Positions 16,573-35,140 of a stretch of DNA of 64,000 nucleotides are shown here, piece by piece. The translations under genes were made by a program, and so were the position numbers. Positions within the stretch are counted from its first letter, which is position 1. The number at the start of each line of letters is the position of its first letter. Origin of the DNA: Corynespora cassiicola (lineage: Eukaryota > Ascomycota > Dothideomycetes > Pleosporales > Corynesporascaceae); assembly GCA_022059125.1 (NCBI GenBank), contig JAEUWY010000015.1, forward strand, positions 62,001 through 126,000, written 5' to 3'. The notes under the pieces are model-generated. The model was not told the DNA's origin. It made no database searches and worked only from the letters and a program-made list of their open reading frames with translations.

Positions 16573-17205
16573 TCAACTCGAGCGACGATCCAGTTCCGCA
16601 TCCGAGATCCTGTCGTTCGCCTCATCCCGCCGTATTATGTCGGAGAGTCTCTCCAGATACCTCACGGGCGGCTCCAGCTCGGCATCTGCGATCCGGTCGT
16701 TCGCCTCGTCCCGCCGTAGGCGGTCCGAGAGCCTCTCCAGATACAACTGCGACGGATTCAGCTCGGCATCCGAGATCCGGTCGTTGCTCTCATCCCACCG
16801 TATCTGGTCTGAGAGCTTCACATGACGCCCATCTTTCCCAGGCGGGGGGATTGGCTCGCGGTGGCGGAGGAGGATCTCCAACATCTGCCGGTCCCGGGGG
16901 ACTTCCAACGTGGAGTTGGATGCGTCGCCCGAGGAGTTGGACATTGGGCTGCTGCGGCCTTTTGTGTTCCGCATCCACATGCCCTCATTGTCTTCGAAGC
17001 CGAGCTTCGTTAAGACCTCCTCGGGGGTTTCGACACAGGTATCACCCGACATGCGAGGAGGCGGGGTGAGCGTGATCTTTGGACCGGCTTTCGATTTCGA
17101 CTTTAAAAGCCGACGAAGTCGCTTGGCGCACCATCCCCTCATGCTGTTGGATTTCGTTGGTTTGAAAAGGTTGCAGGCGAGTCCTTTAACCATTTTCTGT
17201 CGCAA
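16573..17205 (-). CDS. Hypothetical protein with three 28-residue tandem repeats
   Basis: A single exon of 210 residues with no signal peptide. The N-terminal 50 residues are basic (LFKPTKS, KRLRRLLKSKSKAG), which could act as a nuclear or membrane-binding signal. The middle is Pro/Ser-rich with TPPPRMSGDTC and ETPEEVLTKLGFEDNEG. The C-terminal third is built of tandem units of 28 residues with core LSDxxRxDExNDRIxDAEL; the second and third units are close copies, the first is more diverged and the last is cut after about 20 residues. The repeat core is charged and helical in character. Kept reading frame across repeats that differ in sequence suggests a real protein. I do not recognise the family. 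Confidence 0.6.
   Translation of the reverse strand: MRQKMVKGLACNLFKPTKSNSMRGWCAKRLRRLLKSKSKAGPKITLTPPPRMSGDTCVETPEEVLTKLGFEDNEGMWMRNTKGRSSPMSNSSGDASNSTLEVPRDRQMLEILLRHREPIPPPGKDGRHVKLSDQIRWDESNDRISDAELNPSQLYLERLSDRLRRDEANDRIADAELEPPVRYLERLSDIIRRDEANDRISDAELDRRSS
16576..16826 (-). repeat. 84-bp tandem repeat inside the hypothetical gene (about three units)
   Basis: Three direct units of 84 bp, the last one incomplete, share the string GATCCGGTCGTT on the plus strand with small changes. The period is a multiple of three, so the protein frame is kept. Recombination between units could change the copy number between strains. Confidence 0.8.
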
Positions 17206-33593: not shown

Positions 33594-34073
33594 ATGAGAT
33601 TTCGATCAAAACTCACGACCATTGCATTGGCTCAGTCTTTCACGAAACGACTTACGCCCAGCGCTTCGAGTTCTACTACGGAGAAAAATGAGCGATGGGC
33701 GAAACCCGATAAGACAGACAAAAGGTGCCTCAAAGAGGCCGCGCAAAAAGGTGGTCGGAGCGGTTTGCAGCGCAGTAATGCTGTCCGCAGACAAGAGGCA
33801 AAACCATCGCCCACTCCAACAGACTCCTCAAATAAAGAGTTTGTAATTTACGTCGATGAAACTGGATTATCATCACCTGCTAGCACGAACGCTTCGAGCA
33901 AAGAGTTCGTGATCTATGTAGATGAAACTGGATTGTCATCACCTATTACGAACACTTCGAGCAATGAGTTTGTGATCTATGTAGATGAGACTGGGTGGTC
34001 TCAAAAAGAAGAGCGTTCTATCGACGAGCAGCCTTCCGATGGAGACTATTTTGATCACTACCATGCTGTGTGA
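33594..34073 (+). CDS. Small protein with three ABBA-like FVIYVDE motifs (tandem paralog 1)
   Basis: A single exon of 159 residues, with a good start context (CAAAGATGAG). Residues 30-66 form a core (AKPDKTDKRCLKEAAQKGG, then RSGLQRSNAVRR) that is shared with the neighbour at 34799. Three near-identical repeats follow, each with EFVIYVDETG; Phe lies at residues 83, 105 and 126, periods 22 and 21. FVIYVD fits the ABBA consensus F-x-[ILVM]-[FHY]-x-[DE], the Cdc20/Cdh1-binding motif of cyclin A, BubR1 and Acm1. RSGL could be a weak D-box. The end is acidic and aromatic (DYFDHYHAV). The fit is by motif only; an inhibitor or substrate of the APC/C is a hypothesis. No membrane segment or signal peptide is seen. 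Confidence 0.65.
   Translation: MRFRSKLTTIALAQSFTKRLTPSASSSTTEKNERWAKPDKTDKRCLKEAAQKGGRSGLQRSNAVRRQEAKPSPTPTDSSNKEFVIYVDETGLSSPASTNASSKEFVIYVDETGLSSPITNTSSNEFVIYVDETGWSQKEERSIDEQPSDGDYFDHYHAV
33825..33996 (+). repeat. 63-66 bp tandem repeat encoding EFVIYVDETG
   Basis: Three units with starts of the FVIY codons near 33840, 33906 and 33969. They differ mostly at third codon positions (TTTGTAATTTAC, TTCGTGATCTAT, TTTGTGATCTAT), which suggests that the protein sequence is held by selection. Confidence 0.8.
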
Positions 34074-34798
34074 TATTATCCAGCCATAGAAAAGTGGGAA
34101 CTGATTCTTTAAGCATGCTGGTATGACGATTCTTCACGATCCTTGACAATAGCCTTATGTCGTTATCACGAGTTGTCCTGAAGAATTGACTTACATAATT
34201 AGATTGGTCGATGAGATATAATATCTATCGATAGATGATACTTAGCTTATAATACTAACATTACCATTAAAACGTATTCCCTTAATCATTGCTCCCTTTG
34301 CAGTATGGAATGGATATATTCTGATCTTCAGGTCATCTTCCTGTAAGTAAAATCTTGACACATGACAATCAGAATTGCTGATGACGAAAGTAACCATGAA
34401 CCTCAAGTGACTTTTGGGCGGTTAACAGCCAGATCGGGAGCTCTCGACCTCAATACCATGACTAGAGAAGAAGAAATGCCCGCCCGACCCATCCTTTCAT
34501 CCTCATCGTGCCCTAGATACGATGAGGTATTGTAGCAAAAGAATGCACATATAAATTATTCTCTCTACGGTAAAGATGACTTAGTTTGCAACGTTCGTAT
34601 ATAATTTCATGATTTATGGACCTCAATTCTATTGACACAAGACTTCATCTAAAGCAAATAGAAGAAGTGTAAACCAAACGGCAGCATAATTTCACCCCAA
34701 TTCTACAATCATTCACTCGTTTACTTGTACACTGTGGAACTGAATAGTCATCACCTGAACACTCGCTACTCAACACCTCCCGGCATAGCAGATACAAG
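34074..34798. other. Intergenic, AT-rich
   Basis: About 725 bp between the two paralogs. A segment at 34626-34653 resembles 33431-33458 and lies at nearly the same distance from its ATG. No further gene. Confidence 0.5.
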
Positions 34799-35140
34799 AT
34801 GTGTCTCGGATCTACTGTTAAGGCGATCCTTTCCACCAAGTCTGGACATAAAGAAAAAACTGGCGAGTGCACCGAAGTCAATCAGCGGCACGCAAAGCCG
34901 ACTAGGCAGGATACACAGTGCCTAAAAGCGGCGATTCCCAAGGACGGCCCAAGTGGATTATGCCGACGGAATGCAATATCTCGGAAGACTAGCAAAATCC
35001 TATGGACTGAGAGAAGGGCATCACCGTCGGAGACAATTTGGGCTACTCCTATGTCTACATTTGCAGGGTCGGATTCAGAAGTTTGCTCTGAGGATCTTCT
35101 CTTCGAAGAGCTAGGAGACTTCCCGTATCATGCTATCTAA
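34799..35140 (+). CDS. Small protein, tandem paralog 2 (core shared, FVIYVDE repeats absent)
   Basis: A single exon of 113 residues. Residues 25-62 align without gaps to residues 30-66 of the protein at 33594: 21 of 38 positions are identical, including AKP, CLK and the order SGL-x-R-x-NA. The C-terminal ends are also alike (GDFPYHAI against DYFDHYHAV). The middle lacks the FVIYVDE repeats and instead has Ser/Thr-rich residues and an acidic patch (SEVCSEDLLFEELGD). The shared core with a different middle suggests a local duplication followed by loss or gain of the repeat part. The family is unknown to me. Confidence 0.55.
   Translation: MCLGSTVKAILSTKSGHKEKTGECTEVNQRHAKPTRQDTQCLKAAIPKDGPSGLCRRNAISRKTSKILWTERRASPSETIWATPMSTFAGSDSEVCSEDLLFEELGDFPYHAI

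What the first reader, a model, noticed from the sequence alone, without database searches (positions are those of the whole stretch)
33594..35140. Tandem pair of an unknown small-protein family, one copy with three ABBA-like Cdc20/Cdh1-binding motifs
Two adjacent same-strand genes share a 38-residue core (21 identities, gap-free) and a similar C-terminal end, so they are paralogs. Only the first carries three EFVIYVDETG units spaced 22 and 21 residues apart. F-V-I-Y-V-D fits the ABBA consensus. Third-position differences between units suggest selection on the protein. Tandem ABBA motifs with a possible D-box would fit an APC/C pseudo-substrate or regulator, which I have not seen described in this form.
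Basis: partly seen in the sequence, partly recalled or inferred. Interest (0 to 1): 0.75.

Follow-up and report, generated by a model that had tools for sequence, protein, structure and literature searches.

The report
Fungal orphan gene pair, repeated ABBA-like motif
Two neighbouring small fungal genes of unknown function are true relatives, and one carries three copies of a short peptide that looks like a docking signal for the cell-division machinery, but nothing yet shows that it works as one.

Summary
ORF1 (33594-34073, 159 aa) and ORF2 (34799-35140, 113 aa) are paralogs: 22 of 43 core residues identical, 17 of those 22 on different codons. ORF1 alone carries three EFVIYVDETG units, 22 and 21 residues apart; all 7 variable bases in the units are silent.

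The family looks like a lineage orphan: three protein searches returned two relatives, a Corynespora cassiicola protein (138 aa) and a 113-aa ENA protein. The C. cassiicola protein has two units, one with the ABBA acid changed to N.

The ABBA reading is plausible but unproved. F-V-I-Y-V-D fits the published consensus, and the genome's Cdc20 and Cdh1 keep pocket residues that human FZR1 lacks. A Pfam cyclin-A APC/C-binding hit (22.9 bits, cut-off 24) needs several copies. Against it: no KEN, no canonical D-box, no full CDK site, no ABBA in the paralog. A pseudo-substrate in the Acm1 sense is not supported. A tandem-ABBA decoy or tether for Cdc20/Cdh1 is my best guess, at about 0.3.

The parts
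33594..34073 (+). ORF1, 159 aa, single open frame, with three ABBA-like units
   Evidence: same start as deposited C. cassiicola protein
33675..33803 (+). ORF1 shared core, residues 28-70 (TTEKNERW...RRQEAK)
   Evidence: 22 of 43 identical to ORF2, E 1e-11; 17 of 22 identical residues on different codons; coordinates checked
33837..33866 (+). unit 1 EFVIYVDETG (ABBA hexamer FVIYVD at residues 83-88)
   Evidence: D88 is N in the C. cassiicola Philippines protein
33903..33932 (+). unit 2 EFVIYVDETG (ABBA hexamer at residues 105-110)
33966..33995 (+). unit 3 EFVIYVDETG (ABBA hexamer at residues 126-131)
34041..34070 (+). ORF1 conserved C-terminal tail GDYFDHYHAV
   Evidence: YH[AC][VI] at the very end in 4 of 4 family members; coordinates checked
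34799..35140 (+). ORF2, 113 aa, paralog without ABBA units
   Evidence: ENA relative P0004, 8 of 113 residues differ
34868..34996 (+). ORF2 shared core, residues 24-66
35114..35137 (+). ORF2 conserved C-terminal tail GDFPYHAI

Best explanation
ORF1 is a probably disordered protein of a small orphan family, in which a single ABBA-type hexamer was copied into a tandem array. Each FVIYVD unit would lie as an extended strand in the groove between WD40 blades 2 and 3 of Cdc20 and/or Cdh1, with the P6 Asp bridging the conserved blade-2 Arg. Three weak sites on one chain would raise occupancy by rebinding, so ORF1 would be a decoy or tether that competes with Mad3 and with ABBA-bearing substrates. 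Shown: two open frames, paralogy, silent-only variation in the units, consensus match, coactivators that keep the pocket residues. Inferred: expression, disorder, binding, competition and any cell-cycle effect. ORF2 and the shared core must do something else, since they lack the motif.
For: Three strict consensus matches in ORF1; at least one match arises in 0.3% of shuffles of a one-unit version. Seven variable bases in the units, all silent, P about 1e-5. Pfam Cyclin_N2 (cyclin-A APC/C binding region) is the top Pfam match of ORF1, E 1.5e-4. Own Cdc20 (L019) and Cdh1 (L020) carry R, H, I at the human R262, Y279, I280 columns; ABBA-binding yeast Cdh1 has R, H, V; human FZR1, which does not bind, has S, E, Q (binding facts from passages of PMC5179498 and PMC5717348). 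Own Mad3-like protein has an ABBA-KEN-ABBA-like cassette (LAIFSD, KKEN, MMIFKD), so the groove is probably in use. The model of ORF1 is disorder-like, mean pLDDT 42. Of the 10 patterns (8 of them recalled) only ABBA hits the units; a looser SIM pattern also hits all three.
Against: The three units are duplicates, so the motif arose once, and one match is not improbable across a proteome. The Pfam hit is below its cut-off (22.9 against 24), is not reported for any of three single-unit pieces, and falls to E 0.039 in the C. cassiicola protein; a plainly unrelated family, CATSPERB_C, also matches the repeat piece (E 8e-4) and no single-unit piece. No KEN, no canonical D-box, no full CDK site. ABBA absent from ORF2 and P0004. 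One of two units in C. cassiicola has lost the P6 acid. A lone Acm1 ABBA peptide bound Cdh1 with very low affinity (PMC8764033, passages). P5 is Val here, not the Glu that Acm1 uses. Ascomycete Mad3/Bub ABBA motifs often lack the leading Phe (passage of PMC5204127), so Cdc20 here may prefer another form. A four-row alignment may by itself give a low pLDDT.
Confidence: 0.3

Rival explanations
1. The units are another strand-forming docking motif, most likely SUMO-interacting motifs (V-I-x-V followed by D-E), giving a tandem SUMO reader comparable to the RNF4 array.
For: The loose pattern [VIL][VIL]x[VIL][DE] (recalled) matches all three units. Tandem SIM arrays are known from SUMO readers such as RNF4 (recalled).
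Against: Both stricter SIM patterns, recalled, give 0 hits because Y sits at the third position. The F before V-I, kept in all units, is unexplained.
Confidence: 0.15
2. A lineage-specific orphan protein whose working parts are the shared core and the C-terminal YHA[VI] tail; the repeats serve self-association or spacing. The tail resembles an Atg8-binding AIM (aromatic-x-x-aliphatic at the very end), so an autophagy adaptor is one form of this.
For: Core and tail, not the ABBA units, are what ORF1 and ORF2 share. Between ORF1 and P0003 and between ORF2 and P0004, 1 of 86 core sites changed against 12 of 165 elsewhere, p 0.039. The tail fits the recalled LIR/AIM pattern in both ORFs. The structure model reaches pLDDT 50 only around the core, residues 29-60 and 66.
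Against: Does not explain why 7 of 7 base changes in the units are silent. The AIM pattern is very degenerate and also hits ORF2 elsewhere (residue 99). No fold was obtained.
Confidence: 0.3
3. A secreted or host-directed small protein, or a Kex2-processed repeat peptide precursor.
For: Small, orphan, repeat number differing between ORF1 and its C. cassiicola relative; KR at residues 18-19.
Against: No strong hydrophobic N-terminus: best 8-residue mean hydropathy in the first 30 is 1.35 in ORF1 and 1.06 in ORF2 (no signal-peptide predictor was run). No dibasic site between the units. The locus id of the relative is in no held paper.
Confidence: 0.1
4. The repeat is a neutral minisatellite inside a gene, without a binding role.
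For: Copy number differs between ORF1 and its C. cassiicola relative, and one of that protein's units has D to N.
Against: Silent-only variation across three units, P about 1e-5, while the linker took replacements.
Confidence: 0.15

Closest known systems
Acm1 (S. cerevisiae Cdh1 inhibitor)
   Same: Carries the Fx[ILV][FY]x[DE] type of ABBA motif (passages); small, as ORF1 is (recalled)
   Different: Acm1 combines ABBA with KEN and D-box elements; ORF1 has three ABBA-like units, no KEN, no canonical D-box. Homology to Acm1 was not tested directly; the protein-database and PDB sequence searches did not list it.
Mad3/BubR1 ABBA-KEN-ABBA cassette and the ABBA repeat arrays of some MadBub proteins (PMC5204127)
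   Same: Several ABBA motifs on one chain; [quoted passage not shown]
   Different: Those lie in Mad/Bub proteins; ORF1 is a separate orphan with no Mad3_BUB1_I match in Pfam. The genome's Mad3-like locus is L027.
Cyclin A N-terminal APC/C-binding region (Pfam PF16500)
   Same: Weak profile match through the units (22.9 bits)
   Different: Below cut-off 24; no cyclin-box match listed
RNF4-type tandem SIM array (recalled)
   Same: Tandem hydrophobic strand followed by acids
   Different: Y at the third SIM position; no RING match for ORF1 in Pfam

Membership tests
ABBA-motif APC/C ligands | Match to Fx[ILV][FHY]x[DE] | tested here: met
   3 of 3 units
ABBA-motif APC/C ligands | Motif kept in homologues | tested here: not met
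   P0003 keeps 1 canonical unit of 2; P0002 and P0004 have none
ABBA-motif APC/C ligands | Motif in a disordered region | tested here: inconclusive
   Mean pLDDT 42, but only 4 rows in the alignment
ABBA-motif APC/C ligands | A coactivator with a competent ABBA groove in the same genome | tested here: met
   R-H-I in both L019 (Cdc20) and L020 (Cdh1) at the three columns checked
ABBA-motif APC/C ligands | Physical binding to Cdc20 or Cdh1 | not testable with these tools
   No complex modelling on hand
Acm1-type pseudo-substrate inhibitor | KEN box | tested here: not met
   0 hits in ORF1 and ORF2
Acm1-type pseudo-substrate inhibitor | D-box RxxLxxxxN | tested here: not met
   RSKL and RSGL in ORF1, neither with N at the right place; no RxxL in ORF2
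Acm1-type pseudo-substrate inhibitor | CDK sites S/T-P-x-K/R (recalled as typical) | tested here: not met
   5 minimal S/T-P sites, 0 full sites in ORF1
Cyclin A N-terminal region PF16500 | Score over the curated cut-off of 24 bits | tested here: not met
   22.9 bits; 15.1 in P0003
Tandem SIM protein | Strict SIM pattern (recalled) | tested here: not met
   0 hits for both strict patterns
Tandem SIM protein | Loose pattern: V-I-x-V followed by an acid (recalled) | tested here: met
   3 of 3 units

The most novel reading that the evidence does not exclude
A lineage-restricted fungal protein whose chief recognisable feature is a tandem array of ABBA motifs: a stand-alone multivalent decoy for Cdc20/Cdh1 without KEN or D-box, evolved by copying one motif within an orphan gene family.
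Probability: 0.2. Interest if true: 0.7.

Novelty: new variant of a known kind. Interest (0 to 1): 0.4.

Why it matters
If the units bind Cdc20 or Cdh1, this would be a young APC/C regulator made by duplicating a single short motif, showing that an ABBA array alone can act, and offering a natural test of what several copies do without a D-box or KEN box. If they do not, it is a warning about reading short motifs in orphan proteins. My paper searches on ABBA, Acm1 and tandem repeats listed 20 of 47, 12 of 43, 10 of 63 and 12 of 15 papers; no listed title or abstract start names a stand-alone tandem-ABBA protein. I read passages of four papers and none in full.

Tried and rejected
PDB by sequence: 41 chains, E 0.5 to 1.3, all tRNA-guanine transglycosylase or queuine tRNA-ribosyltransferase, aligned within residues 10-64; taken as chance. 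Structure: one AlphaFold job, mean pLDDT 42, pTM 0.14, so no fold search was run. Genome-wide FxIYxDE or FxVYxDE as a DNA pattern: 10 matches, 3 of them ours, 46 for the backwards control; the other 7 lie in frames of 13 to 121 residues between stops, none with a Met ahead of the motif, exons not considered. LIR, PxIxIT, B56, RVxF, eIF4E and PIP patterns (all recalled) miss the units. PF16500 search of the own genome: no match, not even ORF1, and the tool says this does not show absence. ORF2 has one weak Pfam row, E3_UbLigase_RBR, E 0.011, 16.2 bits under a cut-off of 23, not followed; P0004 has none. ORF1's other Pfam rows, DUF4609 and DUF7131, are at E 0.13 and 0.39. A search on APC/C and plant-pathogen effectors listed 8 of 86 papers; I read no more than the listing, nor more than the listing of C. 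cassiicola genome papers (12 of 408).

Full report
What is there. The window lies in a 44.35 Mb genome of 23 contigs, at C15:62001-126000. Two single open frames on the + strand, 33594-34073 (159 aa, P0001) and 34799-35140 (113 aa, P0002), stand between a 206-aa ORF on the other strand without Pfam match and a Pam17 gene. The one database match of ORF1 is a hypothetical protein of Corynespora cassiicola Philippines, P0003, which starts at the same Met and differs at 5 of 138 aligned residues plus one missing 21-residue unit.

Paralogy. BLASTP aligns residues 28-70 with 24-66, 22 of 43 identical, E 1e-11. Of the 22 identical residues 17 use different codons; dN is 0.48 and dS could not be computed, which I take as saturation. 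So the duplication is probably old and the core has been held as protein. The best ungapped score exceeds all 2000 shuffles, 107 against at most 60. Single-protein searches of the own genome find no third member (the only other row, E 2.8, I take as chance). Between ORF1 and P0003 and between ORF2 and P0004 together, 1 of 86 core residues and 12 of 165 others changed, p 0.039. The C-termini share GD[YF] and end in YH[AC][VI] in 4 of 4.

The units. EFVIYVDETG stands at residues 82, 104 and 125. Seven of 30 bases vary among the three copies; all are third positions and silent, about 1e-5 under random substitution. Comparing units 1 and 2, the core has 5 silent and 0 replacement changes and the linker 1 and 4, two-sided Fisher p 0.048 (counts made by hand). 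Against simple constraint, P0003 has only two units, and the first reads FVIYVN.

The ABBA question. The consensus Fx[ILV][FHY]x[DE] was read in PMC5179498 (passages). ORF1 matches three times, ORF2 not at all. At least one match occurs in 0.8% of shuffles of ORF1 and 0.3% of a one-unit version; since the copies come from one, the second is the fairer figure. Pfam gives PF16500, cyclin-A APC/C binding region, at E 1.5e-4 and 22.9 bits under a cut-off of 24. Pieces show that this depends on the summed copies: residues 1-80 no family; residues 69-159 PF16500 at E 3.8e-4; no PF16500 row for any of three single-unit pieces; P0003 E 0.039. CATSPERB_C, surely unrelated, also matches residues 69-159, at E 8e-4, and no single-unit piece. 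It is therefore weak support.

The partners. A search with PF24807 gave 166 matches; the three best are L019 (best PDB match Slp1, so Cdc20), L020 (best PDB match FZR1, so Cdh1) and L021 (a third member, perhaps Ama1-like; label recalled). At the human Cdc20 columns R262, Y279 and I280, L019 and L020 both read R, H, I; yeast Cdh1 and Slp1 R, H, V; human FZR1 S, E, Q. The held text of PMC5179498 prints Y179; by the alignment residue 279 is the Tyr next to I280, and I took that as meant. PMC5717348 (passages) states that the P6 Asp bridges an Arg of blade 2 and that human Cdh1 cannot read the motif. PF08311 found one locus, L027, a Mad3-like protein with LAIFSD, KKEN and MMIFKD in order. So the groove exists and is probably in use in this fungus. 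At the column of yeast Cdh1 Lys333 (counted by eye) L020 has S and L019 has E, and P5 of our motif is V, so the Acm1-type specificity contact is missing. A figure legend of PMC5179498 says that fungal Cdc20 differs in ABBA preference from metazoan Cdc20 and fungal Cdh1, and PMC5204127 that ascomycete ABBA motifs often have a polar first residue; a Phe-first motif might thus point to Cdh1, but this is inference.

What is missing. No KEN, no RxxLxxxxN, no S/T-P-x-K/R; five minimal S/T-P sites, of which two follow units 1 and 2. PMC8764033 (passages) reports very low affinity of a lone Acm1 ABBA peptide for Cdh1. A protein with ABBA units alone would need avidity. That is why I prefer decoy or tether over pseudo-substrate, at 0.3.

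Expression. Not shown. P0004 comes from a 683-base ENA contig holding the whole 113-aa frame, which would suit a transcript, but its kind is unknown.

Verdict. Observation confirmed; mechanism open; not filed as a member of any family.

Noticed in passing
window 16573-17193 (-): 206-aa ORF with about 2.8 copies of an 84-base (28-aa) repeat and no Pfam match.
   Followed up: no
window 34041-34070 and 35114-35137 (+): Shared C-terminal YHA[VI] fits the recalled Atg8-binding (AIM/LIR) pattern at the extreme end of both proteins.
   Followed up: partly
G000 C2:4773913 and C3:18722; C1:121669 and C5:6059696; C6:243500 and C20:2736007: WD40 matches give identical scores at two places each, so segments seem duplicated between contigs.
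   Followed up: no
L028 and L029 (C15 ends): C15 ends in a TTAGGG array (21 counts in the last 1513 bases); its first 1500 bases hold no TTAGGG or CCCTAA and start AT-rich.
   Followed up: partly
L027: Own Mad3-like gene carries ABBA-like LAIFSD and MMIFKD around a KEN, both without the leading Phe.
   Followed up: partly
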